A stretch of DNA of 37,814 nucleotides, from positions 1 to 37,814 of the forward strand of contig ONKQ01000047.1 of the NCBI GenBank assembly GCA_900318465.1, read 5' to 3'. The DNA is from an uncultured Bacteroidales bacterium. GTDB lineage: Bacteria; Bacteroidota; Bacteroidia; Bacteroidales; F082. Positions within the stretch are counted from its first letter, which is position 1, and each line of letters opens with the position of its first letter. Below are positions 1-32,098 of this stretch, one piece after another. A program made the position numbers and the translations under genes. The notes beneath the pieces are model-generated. The model did no database searches. It saw only the letters and a list, made by a program, of their open reading frames with translations, and was not told the DNA's origin.

Positions 1-1
1 A

Positions 2-2509
2 ATACAATCAAGTCCGTTGACTCGAAAAACAACCTATAAAAGACTAATTTTCAATTATTTCAAAGAACTCTTGACCCGTTTTTACGGGACAGCAATGAAT
101 GGAAATGGTGATTTTAATGGTTATATTGGAGCAGGTGTATATTATGAAGATGTTCCAGGCTCTAATCAATACTTCTTCCTTGACATAATGGACCAATGGG
201 ATTGGTCTTCCAATCCCTTACAGGGCACCTATTATTGTTATGGTGATATGGAATGTGTAGGAGGTCCACCTTATATCCCCGGTTCTTATGCAGTTGCTAT
301 GCTCTATAGCATGGACGGCGACTTATGGAACCTCATAGACCTTGGAAGTTATGATTATGCTTATTTTGATATTGTATATTCATCTTCGATGGAAACCAAC
401 TCTGATTTTTCTATAGTTACAGGTGATTTTCTTTACAATAACACTGATGCCACAGTTAATGTGGACATTTGGAATACAGGAAGCGAAACATTTTATGGAA
501 AATTCAGAGTCAATTTGGCCAATTCGGATGGTTCTTGGGTTCAAAATATTGGAATTTATGAATGTAATGAAGGACTTCCCGCAAATTACCATTACACCAA
601 TGGACTTGATTTCACAGGAACAATCACTGCACCATCGGGAACTTATCTTATGGAATTAGCTTACCAAGAGGCTGGCTCTTCCAGTTGGTATTATGCAGGT
701 GCTTCAAATTACCAAAACCCAGTTTGGGTATACGTGGCACCAGAACCCGTTTACGCAGACATTTACGAGCCAAACAATTCCCAATCCCTTGCTTATTCAT
801 TCACACTTAGTTTTTCAGGAAATTCGGCAACAGTTAATACCACGGGGTCAAACCTTCACAATAGTTCCGATGTTGATTACTATAAAATCAACCTCAACGC
901 TGGATATGATTACACAATTACTCCGAGGCTACATGATGCCTTTAACAGTGGGAATGGTAACACTTATTCAGAGGATGGTATGTTTGCCTATTCGACAGAT
1001 GGAGTGAATTGGTCGGAATTCTATGATGATGTAATGACAGGCAACTTCTCTGTAATAGACGGAGGAACGGTTTATTTCGATGTCATTTCCTACTATGAGG
1101 GTGACATTGGTACTTATTTGTTAAGTGTCGGCATAACTCGAACCCAACACACTAATAACTACACTATTTCAGTTTCGGCCAATCCTAGCAACGGAGGCAT
1201 CGTTTCAGGCGGAGGCACCTACAATCAAGGTCAGTCTTGCACTGTTAGTGCCACGGCAAATTCGGGCTACACTTTTGTCAATTGGACGGAAAACGGGACA
1301 CAAGTTTCGACCAATGCCAATTACACCTTTACGGTAACTGGAAACAGAAATTTGGTCGCCAATTTCCAAGCCCAACCGCAGCAATACACAATCAGTGTAT
1401 CTGCCAGTCCAAACAACGGCGGCAATGTCACAGGCGGTGGCACATATCAACAAGGCCAAACATGCACAGTAAGTGCCACAGCCAACAGCGGTTACACTTT
1501 CGTCAATTGGACGGAAAACGGGACGCAAGTCTCTACCAATCCCAATTACACCTTTACCGTCACAAATAGCAGAAATCTCGTCGCCCATTTCACAACGCAA
1601 GGCTATGTTATTACCGCCATTGCAGACCCAACTAACGGAGGTTTGGTAACCGGGAGTGGTGGTTATAATTATGGTGAAACATGCACACTAACTGCCACAG
1701 CAAACACTGGATACACATTCCAAAGATGGACCAAAAACGGCACACAGGTTTCCACCAATCCCACCTATAGTTTCACGGTTACTGAATCCGCCACTTATAC
1801 AGCGCACTTTAACGCACAAAACTATACCATTACAGTGGCTGCCAATCCCAACAACGCTGGAAGCGTATCGGGCGGAGGTAGTTATACCTATGGGCAAACT
1901 TGTACCGTAACCGCTTCAGCCAACAATGGTTATGCATTTACGAATTGGACGGAAAACGGTTCACAGGTTTCCACAAACGCCAGTTATAGTTTCACGGTAA
2001 CAGGCAATCGGAACTTGGTGGCCAACTTTGCCCAAAACACACATACCATTCATGCAACCGCAGGCGCCAATGGTATCATTACACCTTCGGGAACTATTAC
2101 CGTGGCACATGGAGCCAACCAATCCTTCTCCATGATACCTGATTCGGATTACGAGGTTCAAGAAGTTTATATCGACGGCAATCCTATCGGCGCAATGACT
2201 TCATACACATTCACCAATGTGACGGCTGACCACTATATCCATGTCACCTTTATGCATATAGATGCCGTTGGAGAAAACAATAGCAATACAATAAATGTAT
2301 ATCCAAACCCCACAAAAGGCAAAGTTATTGTTGAAGGTAAAGGCATGAACCATATTCGTATTGTAAATACCTACGGACAAATTGTATACAGCTCCAATGT
2401 TGTAAACGAACAAATCCACATCGACCTGTCAGACAATGCCAAAGGCATCTATATGATGCACAGCGAAGCCAATTATGGTCAAGTCATGAAGAAGGTTGTG
2501 GTGGAATAA
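2..2509 (+). CDS. T9SS-sorted surface protein, 5'-truncated by window edge, C-terminal part of a C10-protease-like protein
   Basis: The frame is open to the left edge, so the real start is outside the window and the first in-window start-like codon (TTG at 17) should not be trusted. Residues up to about 380 align by eye with the C-terminal half of the C10 protease at 19544-22144: both carry TGSNLH, a DYYKI stretch, RLHD followed by NSGNG, and MFAYST in the same order. This suggests the missing N-terminus may hold a C10 peptidase domain. Next come about five InlB-type repeats of roughly 74 residues. The protein ends in a type A sorting domain (VYPNPTKGKV, then GIYMM near the end), as in proteins exported by the type IX system and anchored at the cell surface. 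A strong terminator follows. The sorting domain and repeats are visible; protease identity is inferred from the paralogue. Confidence 0.85.
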   Translation: MQSSPLTRKTTYKRLIFNYFKELLTRFYGTAMNGNGDFNGYIGAGVYYEDVPGSNQYFFLDIMDQWDWSSNPLQGTYYCYGDMECVGGPPYIPGSYAVAMLYSMDGDLWNLIDLGSYDYAYFDIVYSSSMETNSDFSIVTGDFLYNNTDATVNVDIWNTGSETFYGKFRVNLANSDGSWVQNIGIYECNEGLPANYHYTNGLDFTGTITAPSGTYLMELAYQEAGSSSWYYAGASNYQNPVWVYVAPEPVYADIYEPNNSQSLAYSFTLSFSGNSATVNTTGSNLHNSSDVDYYKINLNAGYDYTITPRLHDAFNSGNGNTYSEDGMFAYSTDGVNWSEFYDDVMTGNFSVIDGGTVYFDVISYYEGDIGTYLLSVGITRTQHTNNYTISVSANPSNGGIVSGGGTYNQGQSCTVSATANSGYTFVNWTENGTQVSTNANYTFTVTGNRNLVANFQAQPQQYTISVSASPNNGGNVTGGGTYQQGQTCTVSATANSGYTFVNWTENGTQVSTNPNYTFTVTNSRNLVAHFTTQGYVITAIADPTNGGLVTGSGGYNYGETCTLTATANTGYTFQRWTKNGTQVSTNPTYSFTVTESATYTAHFNAQNYTITVAANPNNAGSVSGGGSYTYGQTCTVTASANNGYAFTNWTENGSQVSTNASYSFTVTGNRNLVANFAQNTHTIHATAGANGIITPSGTITVAHGANQSFSMIPDSDYEVQEVYIDGNPIGAMTSYTFTNVTADHYIHVTFMHIDAVGENNSNTINVYPNPTKGKVIVEGKGMNHIRIVNTYGQIVYSSNVVNEQIHIDLSDNAKGIYMMHSEANYGQVMKKVVVE
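1153..2258 (+). repeat. InlB-type (Listeria-Bacteroides) protein repeats, about five units
   Basis: Units of about 222 bases start near 1153, 1378, 1600, 1821 and 2040. The first four encode a pattern of ANP or ASP, NGG, a GGG or GSGG turn, YxxGxxCT, SGYTF or a variant, and W(T)xNGxQVSTN followed by YxFTVT. Units 1 and 2 are most alike, including long identical DNA tracts around the NWTENGTQVSTN codons, which points to recent unit duplication. The fifth unit is divergent and lacks the Trp motif. Such repeats form extended stalks in surface proteins. Confidence 0.85.
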
Positions 2510-9356: not shown

Positions 9357-11822
9357 ATGTCTATGAAAAGATACCTCCTAATCATCCTATCGGCCCTGTT
9401 CATCTTCATGAGCAGTGACCTTTACGCACAAAGAAGAAATCCGGCCAAGAACGCCGACCTCGCTTTCGGGCGCAAGCAATACACCGAGGCCGCCGACCGC
9501 TACAAGAAAGCCTACCGCAAGGTGCGCCGCAACAAAAAGGAAGAACGCAACCGCATCAGCTTCCAAATGGGTGAGTGTTACCGACTTATCGGCCTCACCA
9601 AGCGCGCGGAGCCTTACTACAAGCGCCTTCTGAAGACGGACTATCCCAACACCCATCCCGAGCTGTATCTCTATTTGGCCGAGACCTACAAGATGAATGA
9701 AAAATACAAGGAAGCCATTGAGATGTACAGCATCTACGCGGAAAAAGTGCCCGACGACCCGCGAGGGCCATTGGGGATTGAAACCACAGCGATGATTCAG
9801 GAATGGACGGAAAACCCGTCGAAATATGAACTCACGCCACTGAAGAAAATCAACTCCACAAAAGACTCAGACTATTGCGCCACCTGGCTCAACAGCAACT
9901 ACAACGAAATCATCTTCACTTCCACACGCGACGCGGCCACTGGTAAGGAAAAAGACGGCATCACCGGACAGGAGTTTGCCGACTTCTTCACCTCGAAGCA
10001 AGACCGCAAAGGCGAGTGGAGCACCCCCGTTTTGGCAGACGAAAGCGAGTCGGTGAACACCACAGCAAGCGAAGGTACACCCTATATGAACTCGAAATAC
10101 ACCAAGATGTACTTCACCCGCTGCCTGAGCGATGCACACAAGAAAAACGGCTGCCAAATCATGGTGGCAGGCAAGAGCGGCGGCGCCTTCTCTGACCCCC
10201 ATCCCGTGGAGATTGCCGGTGTCGACACCTTGGATATTGTGGGCCATCCCACCCTCACCAACGACGAATTGGTCATCTATTTCGCTGCCGAGCGCAAAGG
10301 CGGATTCGGTGGAAACGACATTTGGGTGGCCATGCGCGACAACGCCTCCGAGCCGTTCCGTCATCCCTTCAACCTCGGCGAGCGAATCAACACGGCGGGC
10401 AACGAGGTGTTTCCGTTCTTGAGATACGACACCGTGCTTTACTTCGCCTCCGACGGACACGGTGGCATGGGTGGCCTCGACATTTTCGTCAGCTCAATGG
10501 ACACCGCCGGCGAATGGGGGCAGCCGCGCAACCTGAAATACCCCATCAACTCGACGGGCGACGACTTCGGCATCGTTTTCCACCCCACCGAGGAACGCGG
10601 TTTCATCTCATCGAGTCGTGGCAACAGCCGAGGCTTGGACAACATCTATTACTTTGAGGAGCCGCCCATCCTGTTCACCTTCTCGGGCACGGTCAAAGAC
10701 GCCAAGACCAAGCAGTTTGTCAGCAACGCCGCCGTCCGCTTGATTGGCAGCGACGGTTCGAACATGATGACCCGCACCAACGACAAGGGTTATTTCAACT
10801 TCAGCGACAGCCAAATCAACAAGAACACGACTTACGACATCACCGTCGACAAGGAGAATTACTTCACCCTCACCGCACAAGAGACCACCATCGGCGTGGA
10901 GTTCAGCAAGGACTTCGTCAAAGATTACGACATAGAGCCCATCCCGCAGGAGCCTATTATGCTCCCCGACATCCTTTATGATTTGGGCAAATGGGACCTG
11001 AAGCCGCAGTTTGAGGACTCGCTGCAAGGCCTGATTGAGACCCTGCAAGTCAACCCGACCATCACGATTGAATTGGCTTCGCACACCGACTTGCGCGACA
11101 CCGACGAACACAACGACATCCTATCGCAAAAACGCGCCCAAAGTGTTGTGGATTACTTGATTATCAGAGGTATTGACCCGCAGCGACTCACGGCCAAAGG
11201 CTATGGTGAGCGTGTGCCGCGTACCCTCCAAAACGACGTCACAGTGAAGGGTTACACCTTCAAGGCTGGAACGCGCCTGACTGAAGACTTCATCAATTCG
11301 TTGCCCAACACGGAGGTCAAGGAAGCCGCGCACCAAATGAACCGCCGCACCGAGTTCCGCATTTTGAGCAAGGATTATGTGCCGCGCACCAACATCAATG
11401 AAAACCAGACTGTCAACATCGCCATCAACCCGCAAGAAGACCAAACCGTACACTTCACCGTCAACAAGGCCGGTTATTTCACCTTCTTTGCCAACGTGGA
11501 CGGCTACAACGAGCCTCTCACCTACAGCCAAAACGCCGATTTCTGCGTGTCGGAAAGCCGTGCTTTGGAACTGCTGAAAGATGGCCGCATCTCCGCTGAC
11601 GACTTCAAGGGCGACATCGATAAGATTCTCACCACGGGCGGCATCGCCAACAATTCCATCTTCGTCATCAAGGAAGTGAGGATTGCCGGTCGCTCGCTCT
11701 ACAACGTGGAGTGCAAAGTCGTGAGCAAGATGGTCGAACTATGGGTCATCGGACAGAAAGACCTGAAACAGCTCGGCAACTTCGAGTTTGACACTAAGGA
11801 TAAAATGTTAAAGTTCAAATAA
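9357..11822 (+). CDS. PorE-like OmpA-family protein (TPR, beta-propeller, carboxypeptidase-regulatory, OmpA domains)
   Basis: The start at 9357 (or 9363) gives MSMKRYLLIILSALFIF with a signal peptide ending near LYAQ. The GTG at 9234 lies upstream of the promoter and is rejected. Domains in order: TPR-like helices (about 30-150), a PD40/WD40-like propeller with repeated YFASD, GGxDI and GFISSSR motifs (about 190-475), a carboxypeptidase-regulatory fold (about 485-560), then an OmpA C-terminal domain (ILYDLGKWDL, then ASHTDLRDTDEHN and RAQSVVDYL) that binds peptidoglycan. This order is that of the T9SS component PorE. It differs in having no visible lipobox and in about 110 residues after the OmpA domain. 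Given several T9SS cargos here, a role in that machinery is plausible but inferred. A paralogous envelope protein is the alternative. Confidence 0.8.
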   Translation: MSMKRYLLIILSALFIFMSSDLYAQRRNPAKNADLAFGRKQYTEAADRYKKAYRKVRRNKKEERNRISFQMGECYRLIGLTKRAEPYYKRLLKTDYPNTHPELYLYLAETYKMNEKYKEAIEMYSIYAEKVPDDPRGPLGIETTAMIQEWTENPSKYELTPLKKINSTKDSDYCATWLNSNYNEIIFTSTRDAATGKEKDGITGQEFADFFTSKQDRKGEWSTPVLADESESVNTTASEGTPYMNSKYTKMYFTRCLSDAHKKNGCQIMVAGKSGGAFSDPHPVEIAGVDTLDIVGHPTLTNDELVIYFAAERKGGFGGNDIWVAMRDNASEPFRHPFNLGERINTAGNEVFPFLRYDTVLYFASDGHGGMGGLDIFVSSMDTAGEWGQPRNLKYPINSTGDDFGIVFHPTEERGFISSSRGNSRGLDNIYYFEEPPILFTFSGTVKDAKTKQFVSNAAVRLIGSDGSNMMTRTNDKGYFNFSDSQINKNTTYDITVDKENYFTLTAQETTIGVEFSKDFVKDYDIEPIPQEPIMLPDILYDLGKWDLKPQFEDSLQGLIETLQVNPTITIELASHTDLRDTDEHNDILSQKRAQSVVDYLIIRGIDPQRLTAKGYGERVPRTLQNDVTVKGYTFKAGTRLTEDFINSLPNTEVKEAAHQMNRRTEFRILSKDYVPRTNINENQTVNIAINPQEDQTVHFTVNKAGYFTFFANVDGYNEPLTYSQNADFCVSESRALELLKDGRISADDFKGDIDKILTTGGIANNSIFVIKEVRIAGRSLYNVECKVVSKMVELWVIGQKDLKQLGNFEFDTKDKMLKFK

Positions 11823-11826
11823 TATT

Positions 11827-11903
11827 GACTACGGGACTGCGAGACTACGGGACTGCGAGACGAGCCAAAACCCGTGGTCCCGAAGTCCCGAAGTCCCGAA
11901 GTC
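11827..11903. repeat. Imperfect inverted repeat made of short tandem units (GTCCCGAA family)
   Basis: Two exact tandem copies of GACTACGGGACTGCGA (11827-11858) are followed, after about 18 bases, by three tandem copies of GTCCCGAA plus GTC (11877-11903). The two blocks are partly complementary, so the RNA could fold. The element fills almost the whole gap between the PorE-like gene and purM, ending 8 bases before the purM ATG. A related sequence lies at 36870-36893. Confidence 0.85.
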
Positions 11904-13155: not shown

Positions 13156-13183
13156 TTGGTTTTCATGAAAAGTTGTATTTTTG
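13156..13183 (+). promoter_or_regulatory. Probable promoter of NYN gene and prfA
   Basis: A perfect -7 element TATTTTTG (13176-13183) is preceded by TTTG at 13155-13158, with a 17-base spacer. Its position rules out the TTG at 13181 as a start and supports the ATG at 13277. The gap between purM and this gene otherwise shows nothing notable. Confidence 0.6.
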
Positions 13184-13276
13184 CAAACACGATTACGCTC
13201 TCGGCGACGTTTGTTCCGGTGGCTTTTGCCAAATCTTGATAATGAACAAGCCTACCCGCGAGCTTATTTTTTAACT

Positions 13277-13972
13277 ATGAAGAAAGACGCATCACACACA
13301 TTACCCCCAACAAAAATCGCTGTACTTATTGATGGCGGTTTTTTCCTGAAAAGATTCAACGCACTATACAACAAAGACAGAAGCTTATCAGCAGAAGAAA
13401 TTGCTGATTGTATGCATTCTATGGCTTTGCACATGGTTGGCCACAATATACTATATCGCGTTTTCTATTACGATTGTATGCCATTGGGCAAGAAATTTCA
13501 CAATCCGATTACGCATAAGTCCGTAGATTTCAGCAAATCAACCGAATACATTTTCAGATGCAAACTATTTGATGCATTGAGAAGAAAGCGTAAAGTTGCA
13601 TTGCGCCTCGGCACATTGAAAGACAACGGAAATTGGATGCTCCACCCAGAAATCACTAAAGAACTGCTATCAGGAAAAAAGAAACTCGAAGACTTGAAAG
13701 AAGATGATGTCTATATGGAGATTCGACAGAAAGGCATCGACATGAAAATAGGTGTTGACATTTCCTCTTTGGCACTGAAAAAGTTAGTGGATACAATTAT
13801 TTTGGTTGCTGGCGATGCCGACTTTGTACCAGCGGCAAAATTAGCCAGAAGAGAAGGCATCGATTTCATATTACATCCGATGTTCGCTCACATTGACCCT
13901 GATTTGTTTGAACATATTGATGGATTAAGCAGTTATAGACCTGCTCTCCCCATAAAAACAGATACAAAATAA
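13277..13972 (+). CDS. NYN-domain (PIN-like) putative ribonuclease
   Basis: The 231-residue protein has a NYN/LabA-type fold signature: AVLIDGGFFLKRF with Asp19 near the N-terminus, a central acidic IGVDISSLA, and VAGDADFVPAAKLARREG with Asp180 and Asp182, followed by IDFILHP. In this family the clustered Asp residues bind metal for RNA cleavage. The target is unknown. It is more AT-rich than purM and prfA, which may mean later acquisition. Only 8 bases separate its stop codon from the prfA ATG, so the two are probably co-transcribed. The start is fixed by the promoter at 13156-13183. Confidence 0.8.
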   Translation: MKKDASHTLPPTKIAVLIDGGFFLKRFNALYNKDRSLSAEEIADCMHSMALHMVGHNILYRVFYYDCMPLGKKFHNPITHKSVDFSKSTEYIFRCKLFDALRRKRKVALRLGTLKDNGNWMLHPEITKELLSGKKKLEDLKEDDVYMEIRQKGIDMKIGVDISSLALKKLVDTIILVAGDADFVPAAKLARREGIDFILHPMFAHIDPDLFEHIDGLSSYRPALPIKTDTK

Positions 13973-13980
13973 TTGGGTTT

Positions 13981-14136
13981 ATGGACATCACCTCAAAACT
14001 CGAAACAATAAAGCACCGCTGGGAGGAAATGGGCGAACAGCTCGCCGACCCTGCCGTGGCTTCCGACATGAAGAAGTTCGTGAAGCTCAACAAGGACTAT
14101 AAGGACGAAGTTCGTGAAGCTCAACAAGGACTATAA
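13981..14136 (+). pseudogene. prfA: 5' fragment of prfA (release factor 1), frameshifted by a 34-base duplication
   Basis: The ATG at 13981 begins MDITSKLETIKHRWEEMG, the normal RF1 N-terminus. The frame is correct through KDYKD, then enters the second copy of a 34-base tandem repeat in the wrong phase and stops at TAA (14134-14136) after 51 codons. Removing one repeat copy gives a continuous frame of 368 codons plus stop, close to the usual RF1 length. The fragment lies 8 bases after the NYN gene. Confidence 0.85.
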
Positions 14137-14140
14137 GGAC
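14073..14140 (+). repeat. Exact 34-base tandem duplication in prfA
   Basis: Bases 14073-14106 and 14107-14140 are identical and adjacent, each starting GAAGTTCGTG and ending CTATAAGGAC. Since 34 is not a multiple of three, the second copy shifts the prfA frame by one base. Exact identity means it arose recently, is copied reversibly by slippage, or is an assembly error. Confidence 0.97.
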
Positions 14141-15121
14141 TTGGAGCCAATCGTCATGGCCTTCAAGGAATACAAAACCCTGAAAGCCAACATGGAAGAA
14201 GCGCGAGAAATCCTCGCCACGGAGAAAGACGAGGAAATGCGCAAGATGGCCCAAGAGGAATTGGACACCGCCCAAACGCGCATCGAACAGTTGGAGCAGG
14301 ACATCCGTGTGATGATGATTCCCAAAGACCCACAAGACAGCAAAAACGCCATTATGGAAATCCGCGCAGGCACGGGCGGCGACGAGGCCTGCCTCTTTGC
14401 CGGCGACCTGTTCCGAATGTACAGCAAGTTCTGCGAAAACCGTGGCTGGAAGGTCGAAGTGACCAGTGTGAGCGAAGGCGCAAGTGGTGGCTATAAGGAA
14501 ATCGACTTCACCGTGACGGGCAATGGCTGCTACGGCATTTTGAAATTCGAGTCGGGCGTACACCGCGTGCAGCGTGTGCCCAAAACCGAGACCCAAGGCC
14601 GCATCCACACCTCTGCCGCATCAGTGGCCGTATTGCCCGAAGCCGAGGAATTTGACGTGGAAATCAACGAGGGCGAAATCAAGTGGGACACCTTCCGCTC
14701 AAGTGGTGCAGGTGGCCAAAACGTGAACAAGGTGGAGTCGGGCGTGCGCCTGCGCTATATGTGGAAGAACCCCAACACGGGCGAAATGCAAGAAATCCTC
14801 ATCGAGTGTACCGAAACCCGCGACCAGCCCAAGAACCGTGAACGCGCCTTGTCGCGACTGCGCACACGCATCTACGACATGGAATACCAGAAATACATCA
14901 GCGACATCTCCGCCAAGCGCAAGACCATGGTCTCAACCGGTGATCGCTCGGCGAAAATCCGCACCTACAACTACCCCCAAGGCCGTGTCACCGACCACCG
15001 CGTGGAGGGTTTGACCGTCTATAACCTCGCCGCTGTCATGGATGGCGACTTGGATGAAATCATCAACCGCCTGCAAATGGCGGAAAACGCTGAAAGACTG
15101 AAAGAAAACATTGAATCATGA
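14114..15121 (+). CDS. prfA: Peptide chain release factor 1, main body (frame broken upstream)
   Basis: RF1 releases peptides at UAA and UAG. From GTG 14114 this frame carries nearly the whole protein, lacking the first 33 native residues. It has the stop-codon recognition segment around VPKTETQGRIHTSA and the catalytic GGQ (SSGAGGQNVNK), which falls at 233-235 in native numbering, as in E. coli RF1. The C-terminal part (STGDRSAKIRTYNYPQGRVTDHR) is intact. The GTG is Val34 of the native protein and lies in the second copy of the duplication, inside the overlap with the 5' fragment. Translation could occur by re-initiation or +1 slippage between 14114 and 14136; both are inference. Otherwise the gene is inactive in this copy. 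Confidence 0.9.
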   Translation: MKLNKDYKDLEPIVMAFKEYKTLKANMEEAREILATEKDEEMRKMAQEELDTAQTRIEQLEQDIRVMMIPKDPQDSKNAIMEIRAGTGGDEACLFAGDLFRMYSKFCENRGWKVEVTSVSEGASGGYKEIDFTVTGNGCYGILKFESGVHRVQRVPKTETQGRIHTSAASVAVLPEAEEFDVEINEGEIKWDTFRSSGAGGQNVNKVESGVRLRYMWKNPNTGEMQEILIECTETRDQPKNRERALSRLRTRIYDMEYQKYISDISAKRKTMVSTGDRSAKIRTYNYPQGRVTDHRVEGLTVYNLAAVMDGDLDEIINRLQMAENAERLKENIES

Positions 15122-23362: not shown

Positions 23363-23399
23363 ATATTCTCACGCAGAAAGCGCAGAACTATGAGAATAT
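23363..23399. repeat. Inverted repeat after hsdR with CGCAGAAAG/CGCAGAAC direct repeat in its loop
   Basis: ATATTCTCA (23363-23371) pairs with TGAGAATAT (23391-23399), which abuts the hsdR stop codon. The 19-base loop contains two tandem CGCAGAA units. It could end hsdR transcription, although there is no T run. Confidence 0.6.
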
Positions 23400-26300
23400 C
23401 ATTCCTCATCAACCGCATATTTCCTGAAATTCTCCGCCTGCTCAAAGATTTCCTTGAACACGTCGTCTTGCGGGACTGGCGGATAGCCGTGTTCGGCCAA
23501 AATCAAAATCAAGTCCATCTGCAACTCGGCCTTGATGTCGGAACGATTCGCCCAATCGGTGTATCTCGACTTGTCGTCCACCATGGCTTTCACTGCGGCA
23601 GACAATTTCAACAGTTTGTCCTCTGGATACTCGAACCCGAACTTATGGGCAATCTCTTTCAAAATGTCATAAAACGCCTTCTCTTCATAGGTGATACCCA
23701 ACTCCTTGAACGACTTCTTTTCCTTGTTCACCTCTTTCAGCAACTCGGCCATCTGTGCCGCCACTTCGTTGAGCACTTCCTCGGCAAACACTGCATTGTC
23801 GCTGCGGTCATTGTAGCGCATCACCAACTGGTTTAGTCGCTGGGTGAAATCCACGCCTTTCATCTTGTTCACTTTCTTGAAATCGGTAATGACCGTGCGA
23901 AGCAACCTCTCCATCAACTTCACCTTGGTATTGGGTTGCTTCAACTTCTCCAATCGGGCCATGTAATCCTCGCTCAGCACATCCAAATGCTTGGAATCAG
24001 CGTTCACTTGGGCGATTTCCTCCACGCCATCCGACTGCAAGGCTTCCTCAATCATCTGGCGCACTCTTTGGTTCATCTGTGCTATGTCGGGCGCATTGCC
24101 CTTGGTCAACTTGAAGATGATGGCACGCACACCTGTGAAGAAATGGATGTCCTCGCGGTCGCGCTCGGTGATTTCATCGTTGTTGGAGCATAGGTTATAC
24201 GCCGACCTCAGTTTCTTGGCGTGTCCCATGAAAAGGTTCTCGCCTTTTTCGGTGGACTGAACGAACTCCGCCGCGTTTTTCAGGCACTCCAACTGCTCCA
24301 ACGGTGAACCTGATGAGAACTTTGAATAATCGAACTTGTCGAACATGCGGCGCAAAATATCCAACTCGTCTTTCACCATCGTGACCGACTGCTCAATGGT
24401 CTCCACATTCAGCCCGATGCCTTCCCCGTCCGCATATTGCTTCAAGGCCAAATTCATGTTGTTCTTGATGCCGATGTAATCCACCACCAAGCCCTTGTCT
24501 TTCCCTTCGTACACGCGGTTCACCCTCGAAATGGTCTGCACCAGCGTATGCCTCTGGAGCGGCTTGTCGATATACATGGTGTCGAGGCAAGGCACATCGA
24601 AGCCCGTAATCCACATGTCGACCACAATGGCAACCTTGAAGTTGGAATCCGGGTCCTTGAATTCCAAGGCAGCCTGCTTTCTGTCTTCGTCCGTACCAAG
24701 CAAGTCATAAAGTTCCGGCGCATCATCCTTGTTGCGGGTCATAATGAGCCTGATGCGGTCGCTGCCATACAAAGGTGCAGACTCCGCCGCCATGGAATAA
24801 TCGTGGCACTCTTCCTTTTCTTTCGTGGGTTGGGTCACCCAATGCGGACGCAAGGCGACAATCTGTTTATATAGTTCGTAGGCAATGGTCCTATTGGAGC
24901 ATACAAACATCGCCTTGCCGCAAACCGTGCTGCCTTCTTCCAAGCGTTTTTCGTAATGCTCCACGAAATCCTTTGCCACCGTCTCCAAACGCTCGGGGTC
25001 GCCCAAAATCAGGTCCATTTTGGTGACGGCTTTCTTGCTTTCCTCGATTTGGTATTCATTGGTGCCTTCCTCGGCGCATTGCTTGTAATAGTCCTCAATC
25101 TCCTGCAACTTCCTATGGTCGGCGAACACCTTGGCGGCACGGCCTTCATACACAATGCGCCGCGTGATTTCGTCAGCCACGGATTCTGTCATCGTGTAGG
25201 CATCCACCACCTCACCGAACACCTCAATAGTGGCATCAATAGGTGTGCCTGTGAAACCCACATAAGTCGCTTTTGGCAAGGAATTGTGCAAATAGGTGGC
25301 AAAGCCATAACTGCGTTTCACCCCGCTTTCGGTCACACGAACATTCTGGTTGACATTGGTTTGCGAGCGATGAGCCTCATCAGAGATGCAAATGATGTTG
25401 GCGCGGTCGGAGAGCAGGTCGATGTCCTCGCTGAACTTCTGTATCGTGGTCAGGAACACGCCGCCACTCTTCCGGTCACGGAGCAGTTCGCCCAAGTGTT
25501 TCCGCGTTTCCACCTTTTTCACACACTCATCGCCGATAAACCGCTTGGCGTTCACAAACTGTTCGGCCAATTGCTCGTCCAAATCGCTGCGGTCGGTGAT
25601 TAGCACGATGGTCGGACTGGCCAAATGTCGGCTGCGCATCAGCATCCTTGTCAGGAAAAGCATGGTGAGGCTCTTGCCGCAACCCGTGGCACCGAAATAA
25701 GTACCGCCCTTGCCGTCGCCGTGGATGTTGATGTGCGAGTGCTCCAAAATATGCTCGTAGAGTTTGTGCGTGGCAAAGAATTGCGGATAGCGGCACACGA
25801 TTTTCTTCTCGCTCTTCGAGTTGTCGGGGAAAAACACAAAATCCTTGATGACGCTCAACAGGCGTTCCTTTCGGAACAAGCCTTCCATCATCGTGTGCAA
25901 GGAACTGATGCCATCGGTGGCCTTGTCGGTGCTTTCCACCTTGCGCCACGCATAGAAGAAATCGTAGTCGGAAAACAGGGTGCCATATTTGTTGTTCACG
26001 CCATCGCTGATGACTACAAAAGCGTTGTATCTGAACAAATTGGGAATATCCCTCCGGTAGCGCACCGTCAATTGGGTGAAGGCGTTCATGATAGTGGTGT
26101 CCTCCTTCACGGCACTCTTGAACTCCAACACCACCACAGGAAGACCGTTGACATAGACGATGCCATCGGGGATGCGTTTCTCCGTGCCTTTGATTTCCAA
26201 CTGGTTGACAATCTTGAAGATATTCCTTTCGGTATGTTCAAAGTCGATGGGTTCAACGAACAGGTCGGGCAGCGAGGCATCCTCGCGCTTGATGCTGAAG

Positions 26301-26569
26301 CCCTCCACCATCAGGCGATGCGTCAGGGCGTTCTGCTCATAGAGCGAAGCCCCGTTGTCGGTGGTCAGGCGGGCCATCACACGGTCGATTTCCAAAGGCG
26401 TAATGTCGTCTTGCTGATAGCGTTCTTGCAGGTAAAGCCTCAAGTCGTCGCGCAGCAACACCTCCGACAGTTCCTTGTGGACGGTCTCGCCATTCTGATA
26501 CACATAGCCCTGTTGTTCAAACAGTTCCATGATGGCCATTTCGAGGCTATGTTCGTTGAAGTGGGACAT
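23399..26569 (-). CDS. hsdR: Type I restriction endonuclease subunit R
   Basis: HsdR is the motor and nuclease subunit of a type I restriction-modification complex: it translocates DNA with ATP and cuts it away from the recognition site. The N-terminal nuclease has Asp135 (RIPDGIVYVNG) and Glu149/Lys151 (LEFKS), the PD-ExK pattern. The helicase part has Walker A GATGCGKS (293-300), DEAH (397-400), GFTGTP and a later QTISRVNR. At 1056 residues it is full length, with no break seen. It is the last gene of the defence operon, 2 bases after the rloB-like gene, so its translation is probably coupled to that gene rather than to hsdM/hsdS. Confidence 0.95.
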   Translation of the reverse strand: MSHFNEHSLEMAIMELFEQQGYVYQNGETVHKELSEVLLRDDLRLYLQERYQQDDITPLEIDRVMARLTTDNGASLYEQNALTHRLMVEGFSIKREDASLPDLFVEPIDFEHTERNIFKIVNQLEIKGTEKRIPDGIVYVNGLPVVVLEFKSAVKEDTTIMNAFTQLTVRYRRDIPNLFRYNAFVVISDGVNNKYGTLFSDYDFFYAWRKVESTDKATDGISSLHTMMEGLFRKERLLSVIKDFVFFPDNSKSEKKIVCRYPQFFATHKLYEHILEHSHINIHGDGKGGTYFGATGCGKSLTMLFLTRMLMRSRHLASPTIVLITDRSDLDEQLAEQFVNAKRFIGDECVKKVETRKHLGELLRDRKSGGVFLTTIQKFSEDIDLLSDRANIICISDEAHRSQTNVNQNVRVTESGVKRSYGFATYLHNSLPKATYVGFTGTPIDATIEVFGEVVDAYTMTESVADEITRRIVYEGRAAKVFADHRKLQEIEDYYKQCAEEGTNEYQIEESKKAVTKMDLILGDPERLETVAKDFVEHYEKRLEEGSTVCGKAMFVCSNRTIAYELYKQIVALRPHWVTQPTKEKEECHDYSMAAESAPLYGSDRIRLIMTRNKDDAPELYDLLGTDEDRKQAALEFKDPDSNFKVAIVVDMWITGFDVPCLDTMYIDKPLQRHTLVQTISRVNRVYEGKDKGLVVDYIGIKNNMNLALKQYADGEGIGLNVETIEQSVTMVKDELDILRRMFDKFDYSKFSSGSPLEQLECLKNAAEFVQSTEKGENLFMGHAKKLRSAYNLCSNNDEITERDREDIHFFTGVRAIIFKLTKGNAPDIAQMNQRVRQMIEEALQSDGVEEIAQVNADSKHLDVLSEDYMARLEKLKQPNTKVKLMERLLRTVITDFKKVNKMKGVDFTQRLNQLVMRYNDRSDNAVFAEEVLNEVAAQMAELLKEVNKEKKSFKELGITYEEKAFYDILKEIAHKFGFEYPEDKLLKLSAAVKAMVDDKSRYTDWANRSDIKAELQMDLILILAEHGYPPVPQDDVFKEIFEQAENFRKYAVDEE

Positions 26570-26571
26570 GG

Positions 26572-27183
26572 TTATCTCTTTGTTGTTTCTTGACCGATTT
26601 GTTTTAACTTATCCAACAGCTCAAAAGCCTTATACACATTTGAATATGATTCCCCAACTTCTCCAAAGAATTTGGCACGGGTCTTTGCCAACTCTAATTT
26701 CCTTTCTGAACTTAGATTGGACACCCACTTCAATTCTTGTAGAAACTTTGCCTTTTTCTCGTATTCAGGGATGTGTTTGCGTAGTTCATTCTCCGTAGCA
26801 GCAGAATCCTTAAAGTGTCTGTTCGTGTTTTCGAAGTGCAACAAGAACCAATATTCAATCGAGGTAAGACTGTCGCAAAGCACAACATTTCTCTTATTGG
26901 CATACTTTCGGCGTATGGATTCCAGTTTCTTCTTCTCCGCCTCATTACGGTGGGCAACATCCGCATCGAAAACGGCAATGGCAAAACCACCATCCGTAAT
27001 GGCTTCCGCTATCTTTTTATCCATCTCGACAAGTGAAGTGACAGAAAAATAGTATGGCTTTATTGTATAATGGTAGCCGAACAAGGTACGGATATGGGTG
27101 AAATAGTATTGTTCGGTCAATCCCTCACCTAAAATGGTAACCGAATGATTCTTTTGGTTTCTATTATCAATCCGTCTTGCCAT
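26572..27183 (-). CDS. rloB: RloB-like TOPRIM-domain protein
   Basis: The 203-residue protein has TILGEGLTEQYYF near the N-terminus (GEGLTE, residues 19-24) and FAIAVFDADVAHR with Asp73 and Asp75. These give the E and DxD of a TOPRIM nuclease-like site, as in the RloB family (RloB = restriction-linked ORF). The opening MARRIDNRNQKN is also RloB-like. It lies 2 bases after the AAA ATPase gene and 2 bases before hsdR. Known relatives pair an OLD/AAA ATPase with a TOPRIM effector in phage defence (AbiL, and more distantly PARIS). By analogy the ATPase would sense infection and this protein would act as effector. The family is well supported; the defence role here is inferred. Confidence 0.85.
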   Translation of the reverse strand: MARRIDNRNQKNHSVTILGEGLTEQYYFTHIRTLFGYHYTIKPYYFSVTSLVEMDKKIAEAITDGGFAIAVFDADVAHRNEAEKKKLESIRRKYANKRNVVLCDSLTSIEYWFLLHFENTNRHFKDSAATENELRKHIPEYEKKAKFLQELKWVSNLSSERKLELAKTRAKFFGEVGESYSNVYKAFELLDKLKQIGQETTKR

Positions 27184-27185
27184 GA

Positions 27186-28487
27186 TTATAGATCAATTTG
27201 AGGAACGGCACCAAAATTACCTTGATTGTAGGCCTTTTGAATTGAAGACAGGCGATTCAAGCCCCGGAATTCGGCTAAGGAATAGACATCCGTATGCCCA
27301 GAATCCAGTTTTTCTGTGAACCAAACACTGTCTTTGCGGAAGATGCGTTGATCGTTCTGTTTTGATATATCATTCAACAAGGGATCGTAGTGTGTGGTGA
27401 TAATCAACTGAGAACGAGACTTCTTTCTAAGAAAATCTAAAAGTATAAACCTTAGCAGTTGTGGGTGTAAAGAATTTTCCACCTCATCAATAGCTAAAAA
27501 CGCATTGTTTTGTTGAGCATAATAAATGGCTGTTTCAATACCAAAAGTACGACGCGTACCCAATGATTCCAAATCTTTTGGAAGATAAAACTTCGACATT
27601 TTGTTCTGTATGGTAACGGTGTGTTCAAACAATGTGTCATAGCGAGCAAGCGTCTTCTCTTTTCTCATCCTATCTTTCTCAGAAGCAGGAAGCGTTTCAT
27701 CATTCAAGAACGAATTCAGATATTGTTCTGGTATTGCTTCCGTGACAATATCTGTTTTGACATCTGTAATATTAAAATCAGCTTGCTTAAGAAATCCTAG
27801 GAGATGTGCTTTCAAACGGGCGTCATTAGTCATTTGGCGCTCGGCGTATTCAAACAATGCAGTTTCGGGTACAATAACAGGCATGATCTGGCCTAACAGG
27901 CATTGCTTAGCCGCGTCAATCTCGGGAAGGGAGACATTCACTTTATTGCGAGCGGCAAAAAATGACATGTTTTTAAGACACTCTACAGAGATTTTCTCCT
28001 TTTCTATGGCACTGATTTTTACAGGGGCACCAAAATGGATAATTGACTGTCCGTTTTCTAACACACGGTCAAAAAGCATTGTAGGCTGTACGCTGTTATA
28101 AATAAACAACTTTTCGAGAAGGACAGCGTGTTTGTCTATAACAAGTTGGTACCAATATTTTGTGTTTCCAACATAAAAAACAAGTCCAAACTCAGAAGGT
28201 TTGTTGGGCGTTTCATGATCTAATAGGAAAGGGACCGTTTCAGTCCCCATATCCACAGATTGTGGAAGCTCTCGCCAAAAAGAGCCAAGGAACCTAAAAA
28301 CAGATAAAAGATTGGACTTCCCCGAAGCATTGGCGCCATACACCATGGCAAATCTCAAAAGGCGAACACCTGGAGCGACTTCAAACACCTGATATTCATC
28401 AGCAAAGGTGTCTTTAGTGGCCTCGAAACTAAACGTCACCTCATCCTTGAATGAAAGGAAATTCTTTATTTTCAGTTCCTGTATCAT
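27186..28487 (-). CDS. rloA: RloA-like AAA family ATPase
   Basis: This is an SMC/ABC-like AAA ATPase of 433 residues. It starts IKNFLSFKDEVTFSFEA, typical of this class, with Walker A GANASGKS (51-58) directly after a beta strand, Walker B IDEVENSLHP (from 333) and the switch histidine in TTHYDPLL (about 366). The insertion between the two halves is large, as in OLD-family and Rlo ATPases. The gene precedes the rloB-like gene by 2 bases, so the proteins are probably made as partners. The -7 element at 28513-28520 would let rloA, rloB and hsdR be transcribed independently of hsdM. It is more AT-rich than hsdR or hsdM, consistent with separate acquisition. Confidence 0.87.
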   Translation of the reverse strand: MIQELKIKNFLSFKDEVTFSFEATKDTFADEYQVFEVAPGVRLLRFAMVYGANASGKSNLLSVFRFLGSFWRELPQSVDMGTETVPFLLDHETPNKPSEFGLVFYVGNTKYWYQLVIDKHAVLLEKLFIYNSVQPTMLFDRVLENGQSIIHFGAPVKISAIEKEKISVECLKNMSFFAARNKVNVSLPEIDAAKQCLLGQIMPVIVPETALFEYAERQMTNDARLKAHLLGFLKQADFNITDVKTDIVTEAIPEQYLNSFLNDETLPASEKDRMRKEKTLARYDTLFEHTVTIQNKMSKFYLPKDLESLGTRRTFGIETAIYYAQQNNAFLAIDEVENSLHPQLLRFILLDFLRKKSRSQLIITTHYDPLLNDISKQNDQRIFRKDSVWFTEKLDSGHTDVYSLAEFRGLNRLSSIQKAYNQGNFGAVPQIDL

Positions 28488-28512
28488 TTCGTTTTTTCAT
28501 TCTTATACGCTG

Positions 28513-28520
28513 CAAATATA
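28513..28520 (-). promoter_or_regulatory. -7 promoter element for rloA-rloB-hsdR
   Basis: It reads TATATTTG on the minus strand, a perfect match, about 25 bases upstream of the rloA ATG. It lies in the 121-base AT-rich gap after the RAYT gene. No -33 element is evident. Confidence 0.6.
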
Positions 28521-28608
28521 GAATAAAATCGGATATTAAAGCATTTTATTTTCGATTTTTGATAATTTTATGCAGATTCTTGAAATAAATCATCATCCTC
28601 ATATTGAT

Positions 28609-29247
28609 TTATAAATTTTCCTCCCATTCTATTGGATTACGAATGATATAATCGGAAATGTGTCGATATTCTGTTTCGTTTCGAATGATATGGTCGTGGT
28701 AATTCGATTGCCACAGAGGATTGTTTTTGTTGAATTTCGCCATTGCCACATTGTTCGAATCAATCCAATCGTCAATCCGTTTGATGGTTGACGATTTGAA
28801 ACCGGCCACGAATGACGATATTGATTTGGGTTGGCGTTGGAATTGGGGTTGGGGTTGGGGTAGAGACGCACGGCCGTGCGTCTCTACACGGTCGTGCGTC
28901 CCAACATGGTCGTACATTCCAACATGGCCGGAACATTCGCATTTCAATTTGTCCAATATCACAATGGCATGTAAATGGTCGGGCATCAAAACAAATTCGC
29001 CCAAAAACAATTCCTCGCGCAATTCGAATGATTTGAAAAATTCATCATAAACAATTTGCCCCAAATCGTTCAATATCATTTCGCCGTTTTTGATTTCACC
29101 GAACAACCTATTACGCCCAGCGGTGACAATGGTGATGTAATAATGCCCGCTGCTGGCATAATCCCATCCCCGCAAACGATTTGACGGTATTCTGTATTTA
29201 TTTTGGAATTTCTCTGTCATAAAATTATCATTATTTTTCATTGCCAT
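28609..29247 (-). CDS. REP-associated tyrosine transposase (RAYT, Y1_Tnp HUH family)
   Basis: RAYTs are single-strand HUH endonucleases related to the IS200/IS605 transposase, acting on REP palindromes that begin with GTAG. Visible motifs are YASSGHYYITIVTAGR, the HUH-type MPDHLHAIVI, and the C-terminal LWQSNYHDHIIRNE with the likely catalytic Tyr, then YIIRNPIEW. The start at 29247 has GAGGGA just upstream; 29241 and 29220 are alternatives, and the frame beyond 29247 is repeat-derived. About 40 residues between the HUH region and ISSFVAGFKSS are unusual. They include THDRVETHGRASL and a Pro-Gln run encoded by the palindrome and G-run at 28828-28887. The gene lies between hsdS and rloA and has no IS ends of its own. 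Confidence 0.9.
   Translation of the reverse strand: MAMKNNDNFMTEKFQNKYRIPSNRLRGWDYASSGHYYITIVTAGRNRLFGEIKNGEMILNDLGQIVYDEFFKSFELREELFLGEFVLMPDHLHAIVILDKLKCECSGHVGMYDHVGTHDRVETHGRASLPQPQPQFQRQPKSISSFVAGFKSSTIKRIDDWIDSNNVAMAKFNKNNPLWQSNYHDHIIRNETEYRHISDYIIRNPIEWEENL
28828..28887. repeat. G-rich head plus perfect 28-base GTAG palindrome inside the RAYT coding sequence
   Basis: Three GGGG runs in TTGGGG context (28845-28860, with a GGG at 28828) run straight into a perfect palindrome at 28860-28887. Its left half is GTAGAGACGCACGG and the right half is the exact complement. Degenerate half-copies follow to about 28930 (CGGTCGTGCGTC, then TGGTCGTACATTCC). The minus-strand reading frame of the transposase stays open across the whole element. 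Confidence 0.92.
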
Positions 29248-29290
29248 TCGATTCCCTCGTTTTCCCTGTAGAGAGGCACGACCGATTTTT

Positions 29291-29353
29291 GGGGTGTCGG
29301 GGTTGGGGTAGAGACGCACGGCCGTGTGTCTCTACATGGCCGTGTGTCTCTAC
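29291..29353. repeat. G-rich head plus 28-base GTAG palindrome upstream of the RAYT gene, with an extra half-copy
   Basis: Three GGGG runs (29291-29308) precede the palindrome at 29308-29335, which differs from the 28860 copy by one base (GTGT for GTGC in the right arm). A further right half (ATGGCCGTGTGTCTCTAC) follows at 29336-29353. It lies 61 bases upstream of the RAYT start in the gap after hsdS. Confidence 0.9.
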
Positions 29354-29431
29354 GATGGCACGCATAATACACAAAACCAACACCAAACAATTTTCCAACA
29401 TTTATCCGATAATTCCCCAAATCCATGTTTT

Positions 29432-30250
29432 TTATTTCCCCATCCTCGCCAATAGCAAAGACTGTAATTCAGTTAATTTCTCGTTCTCTTTTATTATCAA
29501 TTGAATATAAGACAGAAGTCTCTCTATATCTTTAGAAAATGACTTGCACTTATCATTATTAAATACCAATTCGAAATCTGAAATATCTCCTCTAACAATA
29601 TATGGAATTGAAGAACCTCTTGAACCACCCATATATTTTGTTTGAAATTCAATTTTAAGAACACAATACAAATATGACATCAAGTCTACATAATCTTTCT
29701 TAGGCAAACAAGCATATGTCCTTTGATACAAATCAAACTCTTTATCATAATAAGTGACTCTTCCTGTATAGGAACCATTTCCTGCAATTAAAGCAGCAGG
29801 ACCTTTTGCAATAAACTCATTAGAATAATATGGGGCTGGAGAGCATGAAAAGAAGCGATATTTACCTTCATTTAATGACTCATTTACATCTTTCTTTCCA
29901 GTTATTATATCACAAAACTCTCCGACTGTTCCCCTTCTCCACCCCTCCGGCAGATTCTCCTTGTCAATCCCATCCACGAACATCTTGCGGTACAAGGCCT
30001 GCGCGGTCTCTTCCAAACGGGCAATCATCTGCTCGTTGAGGCGGATGCGGCGGCTCAGCGTTTCGTATTCTTCCACAATTTCGCGCTGGCGGGAGATGGA
30101 TGGGATGGGCAACACCAAATTGCACAATTCATCCCAATCGAACACCTCACGGGCGCTGCCATGGGAATGGAAACGGGCATAACGGTCAAATTCGGGACGA
30201 CGGAACCACATCATCAAATATTCGGGCAATATTGGGGTTTGTAGACGCAC
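29432..30250 (-). CDS. hsdS: Type I restriction specificity subunit, 3' part of a broken hsdS
   Basis: HsdS reads the DNA target for the type I complex. This part begins at a GTG lying inside the palindrome at 30241-30264, so the start is probably artefactual. It holds the end of target recognition domain 1 (ILPEYLMMWFRRPEFDRYARFHSHGSAREVFDW), the central conserved helix (ISRQREIVEEYETLSRRIRLNEQMIARLEETAQALYRKMF) and recognition domain 2 (from about LPEGWRRGTVGEF). From about 29930 toward the 3' end base composition turns markedly AT-rich, suggesting a recombined second recognition domain. With the 5' part in another frame, HsdS is split into two peptides, each holding one recognition segment. 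Whether they reassemble is unknown. Confidence 0.85.
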   Translation of the reverse strand: MRLQTPILPEYLMMWFRRPEFDRYARFHSHGSAREVFDWDELCNLVLPIPSISRQREIVEEYETLSRRIRLNEQMIARLEETAQALYRKMFVDGIDKENLPEGWRRGTVGEFCDIITGKKDVNESLNEGKYRFFSCSPAPYYSNEFIAKGPAALIAGNGSYTGRVTYYDKEFDLYQRTYACLPKKDYVDLMSYLYCVLKIEFQTKYMGGSRGSSIPYIVRGDISDFELVFNNDKCKSFSKDIERLLSYIQLIIKENEKLTELQSLLLARMGK

Positions 30251-30546
30251 GGCCGTGCGTCTACTACGGATGCGATTTCAAAAACCGTATAGGCCTGTGA
30301 AATGATGGCCTCCTCTTCGTCCAACAATGCAATGGTGATTTTATCCCCGTTACGCGATGTGACAGGAACGTATGCGAATTGATTCCTTTTGATGATTTTG
30401 TACACCGACATATCCGTTCCAATTGTATTGGCAATGGAAGGAATGAATTTCTTCTCGATGCTCAGCCCAAGCAAGTTCGTCACCTTCAACTCGCTGTTGC
30501 GGACGTTCACCTCTCTGATATAGTCGCCTAACCTATTATAATCCAT
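30214..30546 (-). CDS. hsdS: Type I restriction specificity subunit, 5' part of a broken hsdS
   Basis: The ATG at 30546 (MDYNRLGDYIREVNVRN) overlaps the end of hsdM by 11 bases, the usual hsdM/hsdS arrangement, and is preferred to 30561. The protein is a normal HsdS N-terminus through IISQAYTVFEI. It then reads into the palindrome at 30241-30264 as VVDARPCVY and stops at TGA in 30214-30216 after KPQYCPNI. The continuation ILPEYLMMW expected after this point is present in another frame (29432-30250). The break therefore coincides with the palindrome. Confidence 0.85.
   Translation of the reverse strand: MDYNRLGDYIREVNVRNSELKVTNLLGLSIEKKFIPSIANTIGTDMSVYKIIKRNQFAYVPVTSRNGDKITIALLDEEEAIISQAYTVFEIASVVDARPCVYKPQYCPNI
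30241..30264. repeat. 24-base GTAG palindrome at the hsdS break
   Basis: A perfect palindrome with left half GTAGACGCACGG. It lacks the two central arm pairs AG/CT of the 28-base copies and is preceded by TTGGGGTTT (30232-30240). As 24 is a multiple of three, the frameshift in hsdS needs at least one extra base change at the junction. Confidence 0.93.
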
Positions 30547-32098
30547 AACCCAACTTATCAAAGAGTGATTTTAACTCCTGTTTACTTTCCTCTTCTTGCT
30601 TTAAGAGGCTGCTCATCTCCACTTGCAGTTCCCGCATCTTCGTGTCAAAATCAATCTGCTCGTCGCGGTTGCGGAACTCGATGTATTTGCTGGGCACGAG
30701 GCTCCAGCCTTTTTGCTCTATCTCGTCGAGCGTGGCGGAATAGCAATATTCCGGTTCGTTGTGATAAGTCTGCTCATACCCTATCCGCTGCCAGTTGTGG
30801 AAATTCTCGGCGATACGGGCAATCTGCTCTTGCGAAAACTGGATGTATTTCTTCTCAAACGGCTCACCCCATTGGCGCAAGTCGATGAAAAGCACCTCAT
30901 TCTCGCGGTCGCGGTATTTCACCATTTTGCCGTTCTGTTCCACCACACGGGCTTTCTTGTTGTGGTTCAAAATCCAAAGCGTCACGCTGATGTCGGTGGA
31001 ATAGAACATGTTGCGCGGCAAAATGACGATGGCTTCCACCAAATGGTTCTTCAACAGTTGCTTGCGGATTTCCAGTTCAGTGCCGTCACCGCTCAAAGCA
31101 CCATTGGCCAAAAGAAAACCTGCCGTGCCGTTGGCGGAGAGTTTCGAGACGATGTTGAGAATCCAGCCGTAGTTGGCGTTGCTCGTAGGCGGGACCTCAT
31201 AACCCACCCAGCGCGGGTCGTCCACCAACTCGGTCTCGGCCCGCCAAGCCTTTTGGTTGAAAGGCGGATTGGCCATGATGAAATCGGCCTTCAAAGTCTT
31301 GTGTTGGTCGTTGTGGAAGGTGTCGGCGGCCATTTCGCCCAAGTTGCAGGCAATGCCACGGATGGCGAGGTTCATCTTTGCCAGTTTGTAGGTGGTATTG
31401 GTGTATTCCTGACCGTAAACGGAGATGTCGCGCTTGTTGCCGTGGTGCGCCTCGATGAACTTCATACTCTGCACGAACATGCCGCCAGAACCACAGCAAG
31501 GGTCGTAAATCTTTCCGCGATAAGGCTCAATCATCTCGGCAATCAGGTTGACGATGCTCTTGGGCGTGTAATATTCGCCTTTGCCCTTGCCTTCGGCGAT
31601 GGCGAACTTGCCGAGGAAATACTCATACACACGGCCAATGAGGTCGTTTTCTGGGTCTTTCAGCGTGTCAATCTTGTTGATTTCATCAAGCAAGGCGGCG
31701 AGTTTGGTGCGGTCGAGCGACAAACCCGCGTAATAGTTGTTCGGCAGGGCACCTTTCAAGGTTGGATTGCTTTCTTCCACCTTGGCCAAAGCCTTGTCAA
31801 TCTTGATGGCGAGGTCGTTTTGCTTGGCGTTCTCAATCAGGAAATCCCAACGGCTCTCAGGCTCCAAGTAAAAGACATTCTTGGCATTATAGAAAACAGG
31901 ATTGTCGGCAAAAGCCTCCTTGCCTTCCTCTATGAGTTCCTTTCGACGCTCCGCAAAGCGGTCGTTGGCGTATTTCAGGAAGATTAGGCTTAATACAACA
32001 TGCTTATATTCAGACGGTTCCACAGAGCCGCGCAATTTGTTCGCCGACTCCCACAAGGATTCCTCGATGGACTTTTCTTTTGTCAAGGTTTTGGCCAT
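30536..32098 (-). CDS. hsdM: Type I restriction-modification methyltransferase subunit M
   Basis: HsdM transfers the methyl group from SAM to adenine within the site chosen by HsdS. The 520-residue protein has the HsdM N-terminal helical domain (ESLWESANKLRGSVEPSEYKHVVLSLIFLKYANDRF), the SAM motif DPCCGSGG (199-206) and the N6-adenine motif NPPF (277-280). These are intact and the length is normal. It is the first gene of the island, with a -7 element at 32122-32129, and overlaps hsdS by 11 bases. With hsdS broken, host methylation may be lost or changed, an important point given that hsdR looks whole. Confidence 0.96.
   Translation of the reverse strand: MAKTLTKEKSIEESLWESANKLRGSVEPSEYKHVVLSLIFLKYANDRFAERRKELIEEGKEAFADNPVFYNAKNVFYLEPESRWDFLIENAKQNDLAIKIDKALAKVEESNPTLKGALPNNYYAGLSLDRTKLAALLDEINKIDTLKDPENDLIGRVYEYFLGKFAIAEGKGKGEYYTPKSIVNLIAEMIEPYRGKIYDPCCGSGGMFVQSMKFIEAHHGNKRDISVYGQEYTNTTYKLAKMNLAIRGIACNLGEMAADTFHNDQHKTLKADFIMANPPFNQKAWRAETELVDDPRWVGYEVPPTSNANYGWILNIVSKLSANGTAGFLLANGALSGDGTELEIRKQLLKNHLVEAIVILPRNMFYSTDISVTLWILNHNKKARVVEQNGKMVKYRDRENEVLFIDLRQWGEPFEKKYIQFSQEQIARIAENFHNWQRIGYEQTYHNEPEYCYSATLDEIEQKGWSLVPSKYIEFRNRDEQIDFDTKMRELQVEMSSLLKQEEESKQELKSLFDKLGYGL

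What the first reader, a model, noticed from the sequence alone, without database searches (positions are those of the whole stretch)
13981..15121. Exact 34-base duplication frameshifts prfA, usually an essential gene
Two identical adjacent 34-base copies shift the RF1 frame at codon 42; removing one restores a normal 368-residue protein with GGQ at 233-235. Possible explanations: assembly error, a fresh mutation compensated by another release factor gene, slippage that restores the frame in part of the population, or translation from GTG 14114. The premature stop is UAA, which RF1 itself reads, so a self-regulating loop is conceivable but speculative.
Basis: partly seen in the sequence, partly recalled or inferred. 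Interest (0 to 1): 0.8.

Follow-up and report, generated by a model that had tools for sequence, protein, structure and literature searches.

The report
Assembly stutter in release-factor gene
A 34-letter stretch appears twice in a row in a gene that cells normally need to finish proteins, most likely because the computer assembly of mixed gut bacteria stuttered there, so it is probably an error in the record rather than biology.

Summary
14073-14106 and 14107-14140 are identical and adjacent; the ATG 13981 frame ends at TAA 14134 after 51 codons; GTG 14114 opens 335 residues of release factor 1 (RF1) with GGQ.

The junction is in 1 of 99 genomes of the genus, the window's own, which holds no second prfA, only prfB.

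Most likely it is an artefact of a short-read metagenome assembly. Contig ends share an exact 98-base word. The repeat lies in the part of prfA that most often shares runs of 34 or more bases with other species, and four relatives' contigs end just upstream of it. In about 1.2 Mb read from this assembly there is one other exact two-copy duplication, 35 bases in fabG; left of it the contig is 99.5% identical to one relative, right of it 91.0%, as at a false join.

TAG stops are in use (97 of 780 ORFs) and prfA is under strong purifying selection, so the cell very probably has working RF1.

No reads were available, and a species switch at prfA itself is not shown. A real, recent duplication is not excluded. 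An RF1-sensing loop is unlikely, because RF2 also reads UAA.

The parts
14073..14106 (+). first copy of the 34-base unit, inside prfA
14107..14140 (+). second, identical and adjacent copy; 34 is not a multiple of 3, so the frame shifts; probably an assembly artefact
   Evidence: junction in 1 of 99 genus genomes, in 0 of 24 close GTDB loci
13981..14136 (+). frame from ATG 13981: 51 codons and TAA at 14134-14136
14114..15121 (+). 335-residue RF1 frame from GTG 14114 with GGQ, equal to native residue 34 onward
14041..14160 (+). block of prfA that shares exact runs of 34 or more bases with about half of 54 other genomes of this RF1 type
   Evidence: 41-55% per 30-base bin; 21 of 55 relatives hold the exact unit
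1..99 (.). end of the contig; 98 bases of it are identical to the ends of other contigs of the same assembly, as in de Bruijn assemblies with k about 99

Best explanation
The second copy is most likely not in the organism. The window is one contig of a short-read metagenome assembly from a gut Bacteroidales genus that includes Candidatus Limimorpha. At 14041-14160 prfA is nearly invariant between related species, so their assembly paths meet there. The assembler or a later step joined a piece that ends in the shared 34-mer to a piece that begins with it and kept both copies, which shifts the frame on paper only; the cell then has an ordinary RF1. Shown: the repeat, its absence from relatives, the shared block, relatives' contigs that end beside it, shared contig termini in this assembly, and a like duplication in fabG that lies on a change of nearest species. 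Inferred: that the same kind of join made the prfA copy, and which step of the assembly did it.
For: Junction in 1 of 99 genomes and in 0 of 24 close GTDB loci. The repeat lies where cross-species exact runs of 34 or more bases are commonest. Four of seven relatives' contig ends inside prfA lie at about 14046-14061. In 1,195,486 readable own bases there is one other exact two-copy, non-periodic duplication, 35 bases in fabG; left of it the contig is 99.5% identical to G064 over 1,712 bases, right of it 91.0%, while G095 reaches 95.7% on the right. Other bins of the genus carry other lesions in prfA, one of them a deletion over the GGQ codons. TAG ends 97 of 780 own ORFs; dN/dS of prfA 0.006-0.05. 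[quoted passage not shown]
Against: The two copies together (68 bases) are shorter than k about 99, so a plain k=99 contig would need reads that span them; the false join must come from a lower-k step, local assembly or later processing, which I could not see. No genome close enough is held to show a change of species at prfA: G056 is among the nearest on both sides and keeps the gene order. A second, equally long exact-run peak of prfA (14881-14940, 35-49% of genomes) has no lesion in the own gene. One of the four clustered contig ends (G077) is of a more diverged copy that lacks the exact block, and the stretch used for the probability was chosen after seeing the ends. Among 32 readable termini of 20 whole own contigs only this one shared word was found.
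Confidence: 0.86

Rival explanations
1. A real, recent 34-base tandem duplication in the sampled population that breaks prfA in the cells that carry it, either a minority or a dying lineage, and that can be lost again by slippage between the copies.
For: The copies are exact, as a fresh duplication would be. The copies together are shorter than the inferred k of about 99, so reads may well span them. Synteny and nearest relative are the same on both sides.
Against: The same assembly has a like duplication in fabG at a change of nearest species. The junction itself has no microhomology (TRF gives exactly 2.0 copies). A consensus contig should show the majority form, and TAG stops and purifying selection point to working RF1.
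Confidence: 0.09
2. A standing duplication with a working, shortened RF1 started at GTG 14114.
For: The 335-residue frame keeps PxT and GGQ and scores as RF1. [quoted passage not shown]
Against: No relative has it. GTG 14114 is simply the native valine-34 codon in the second copy; nothing shows that it is used as a start.
Confidence: 0.03
3. A self-regulating frameshift in which low RF1 lets ribosomes shift at UAA 14134, as RF2 does at UGA.
For: A stop codon that RF1 reads lies in the shifted frame, and the two open frames overlap at 14084-14133.
Against: UAA is read by RF2 too, so it does not report on RF1 alone. At CTA TAA a +1 step gives no evident re-pairing (own reasoning, not computed). 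Not conserved.
Confidence: 0.01

Closest known systems
Intergenomic misassembly at regions shared between species in short-read metagenome assemblies
   Same: A conserved block shared by related species, contigs that end there in other bins, and in the same assembly a duplication at a change of nearest species. The general cause is described in passages of PMC8021871.
   Different: The form seen here, an exact two-copy repeat of about 34-35 bases left at the join, was not described in what searches returned; for prfA itself the species change is not shown.
Bacterial RF1 (prfA)
   Same: Domain make-up PCRF plus RF-1, PxT and GGQ, curated scores above cut-off.
   Different: The recorded frame is shifted at codon 43; the open 335-residue frame lacks native residues 1-33.
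RF2 (prfB) autoregulatory +1 frameshift (recalled)
   Same: A stop codon early in a release factor gene and the need of a +1 step.
   Different: UAA instead of UGA, made by a duplication, found in one genome only.
RFH and RF1 without domain 1
   Same: Would lack part of the N-terminal domain, which passages of PMC1586002 call non-essential.
   Different: Only 33 residues are missing, and expression from GTG 14114 is not shown.

Membership tests
Peptide chain release factor 1 | curated RF1 model above cut-off | tested here: met
   NF001859 465.8 of 400 and TIGR00019 436.1 of 423.25 bits for the 335-residue frame
Peptide chain release factor 1 | GGQ and PxT motifs (motif names recalled) | tested here: met
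   GGQ at 200, PKT at 156 of 335 residues; intact relatives have PKT too
Peptide chain release factor 1 | complete frame from the native start | tested here: not met
   TAA after 51 codons
Assembly artefact by a false join in a shared block | repeat absent from relatives | tested here: met
   1 of 99 genomes, 0 of 24 other loci
Assembly artefact by a false join in a shared block | unit lies in a stretch shared exactly with other species | tested here: met
Assembly artefact by a false join in a shared block | like duplications elsewhere in the same assembly | tested here: met
   one, in fabG, in 1,195,486 readable bases; none of two copies in about 705 kb of relatives
Assembly artefact by a false join in a shared block | change of nearest species across the prfA repeat | tested here: inconclusive
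   no near-identical genome held; G056 among the nearest on both sides; met at fabG
Assembly artefact by a false join in a shared block | raw reads with a single copy | not testable with these tools
   no reads are held
Programmed frameshift autoregulation as in prfB | stop codon read only by the factor that is regulated | tested here: not met
   the stop is TAA, which RF2 also reads (abstract of PMC1586002); prfB is present
Programmed frameshift autoregulation as in prfB | conservation in relatives | tested here: not met

The most novel reading that the evidence does not exclude
The duplication is real and standing, and this lineage makes RF1 by restarting at GTG 14114 after a 51-codon leader, so that RF1 output depends on termination and restart around UAA 14134.
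Probability: 0.03. Interest if true: 0.7.

Novelty: not a real feature. Interest (0 to 1): 0.1.

Why it matters
If it were real, a bacterium living with a broken RF1 frame would make release-factor essentiality and restart directly testable. As an artefact it carries a practical lesson: an exact two-copy repeat of about 34-35 bases inside a conserved gene of a metagenome bin can mark a false join between species, so a broken essential gene in such a bin should be checked against reads first.

Tried and rejected
Second prfA: none in the own genome. A second copy of the prfA 5' part as cause of a tangle inside this genome: only a 26-base match on C43. Loss of UAG as a stop: rejected, 97 of 780 own ORFs end in TAG, though in the window alone it is 1 of 23. 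Relaxed selection on prfA: rejected, dN/dS 0.006-0.05 against four relatives. Change of species at prfA: not shown. Plasmid copy: no match. In-frame stops reported for some distant relatives: in the two that I read, G040 and G053, the stop is the normal end of the protein. Print: searches returned no paper whose listing describes such a repeat as an assembly error; I read passages of one paper and only listings of the others. Rows left out: the G008 row comes from where I cut the stretch; searches dropped internally periodic units and units under 20 bases; seven own repeats of 2.24-2.78 copies (units 66, 23, 23, 44, 21, 21, 21 bases) were listed but not checked against relatives, and two such in relatives (49 and 22 bases) likewise. 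The relatives' 705 kb comes from two sets that partly hold the same genomes. One 2-kb overlap is counted twice in the own 1,195,486 bases. Six of 99 genomes of the genus show no RF1-type match at all (G002, G003, G007, G028, G090, G094; completeness 58-88%), which I read as incomplete bins but did not follow.

Full report
What was claimed and what is there. The 34-base unit occurs at 14073-14106 and 14107-14140, exact and adjacent. From ATG 13981 there are 42 normal codons, nine shifted ones and TAA at 14134-14136. GTG 14114 opens 335 residues that score as RF1 above two curated cut-offs. Three intact relatives read here make 368 residues with GGQ at 233-235; the 335-residue frame begins at native residue 34.

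The organism. The window is the whole of contig C84 of an unnamed 3.67-Mb, 132-contig assembly, listed as 98.87% complete and 2.73% contaminated. The 24 closest loci of GTDB genomes (92-99% identical in RF1) come from metagenome bins, many from rumen or reticulum; one is titled Candidatus Limimorpha equi. The genome holds one RF1 gene and one RF2 gene, prfB on C54.

Is the duplication shared? The junction is in 1 of 99 genomes of the genus, the own one, and none of the 24 close GTDB loci carries it. In one search, 55 of 99 genomes have this RF1 type, 38 a second type at 66-70% identity, and 6 none. Of the 55, own included, only the own one has the 34-base insertion. Four others have other lesions: G019 a one-base insertion, G029 a deletion of about 88 bases, G084 one of about 136 bases, and G083 one of about 80 bases that takes away the GGQ codons. 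A gene without GGQ should not work as RF1 (general knowledge), so at least that record is probably in error too; the others could in principle be real.

Why the assembly is suspect here. The first 98-99 bases of the window are identical to the ends of six other contigs, C7, C29, C30, C59, C83 and C123 (contig lengths, for C59 by locus length). This is how de Bruijn contigs end, with k about 99. Among 32 readable termini of 20 whole own contigs no other shared word was found. In prfA the four 30-base bins from 14041 to 14160 share exact runs of 34 or more bases with 41-55% of 54 other genomes; elsewhere it is 1-27%, except 14011 (31%) and 14881-14940 (35-49%). 21 of 55 relatives hold the exact unit. 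Seven contig ends of relatives lie inside prfA (G051, two of G010, G077, G083, G014, G057); four of them are at about 14046-14061, just upstream of the repeat. A uniform model gives 6e-5 for four of seven in a 41-base stretch that I chose after seeing them, and 4e-4 for any four of seven within 16 bases. The G077 copy is more diverged and lacks the exact block. One further contig, of the bin P3, begins at about 14032.

A second case in the same assembly. I took 81 own stretches, window included; 75 held readable bases, 1,195,486 in all. Exact two-copy, non-periodic duplications of 20-200 bases: two. One is this. The other is 35 bases, 2.03 copies, near the 3' end of fabG on C8 (L142:1678-1748; TIGR01830 312.2 bits, cut-off 297.75). 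The insert is absent from nine relatives' loci and from the own second fabG-like copy on C16. Left of that repeat C8 is 99.5% identical to G064 over 1,712 bases; right of it the identity falls to 91.0%, while G095 reaches 95.7%. So that repeat lies on a change of nearest species, as a false join would; natural recombination could also give a mosaic, but would not need the exact repeat. In about 705 kb of relatives no two-copy repeat was found. C8 may be one of the stray contigs of the bin.

What this does not show. At prfA no near-identical genome is held, and G056 is among the nearest on both sides with the same gene order, so a change of species there is not shown. The two copies together are shorter than k about 99, which by itself speaks for read support; the false join must then come from a lower-k step, a local assembly or later processing. 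No reads could be checked.

Does the cell lack RF1? Very probably not. TAG ends 97 of 780 own ORFs of at least 150 residues outside the window (12.4%), against 3 of 26, 3 of 25, 4 of 22, 1 of 26 and 10 of 111 in relatives; in the window it is 1 of 23. dN/dS of the part of prfA after the repeat, against four relatives, is 0.006-0.05; this would also hold if the break were very recent. In E. coli RF1 has been removed after changing TAG-ending genes, or with RF2 variants (passages of PMC4434889).

Restart and self-regulation. [quoted passage not shown] Nothing shows that it is made. A loop that senses RF1 through UAA is unlikely, since RF2 reads UAA, and the site is not conserved.

Verdict. Ordinary: an exact repeat that is most likely an assembly artefact (0.86), with a fresh real mutation as the main rival (0.09).

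Noticed in passing
window 14114-15121; L117 and L118 (G040, G053): The genus holds two RF1 types: the own one has the long loop that passages of PMC4530459 call the 12 aa-motif, ascribed to RF2-to-RF1 gene conversion; two of the 38 genomes with the second type, read, have the short loop, which would be a motif reversion inside one genus.
   Followed up: partly
L142:1678-1748 (own contig C8): A 35-base exact tandem duplication near the 3' end of fabG, on a change of nearest species; a second fabG-like stretch lies on C16, 88% identical.
   Followed up: yes
L115, L116, L197, L198: Four bins of the genus carry other lesions in prfA: a one-base insertion and three deletions, one over the GGQ codons.
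   Followed up: partly
window 13181-13972: The NYN-domain gene next to prfA aligns at the limit used only to G056 (94%) and G064 (84%) of 98 other genomes, so the gene upstream of prfA varies.
   Followed up: no
window 23399-32098: Type I restriction-modification genes (HsdR 23399-26569; HsdM 30536-32098) with an AAA-ATPase gene between them and 18-base repeats at 28824-28938 and 29320-29359.
   Followed up: no
window 11827-11903: Two short exact tandem repeats (16 bases x 2.2 and 8 bases x 3.4) just after the stop of the OmpA-like T9SS gene at 11822.
   Followed up: no
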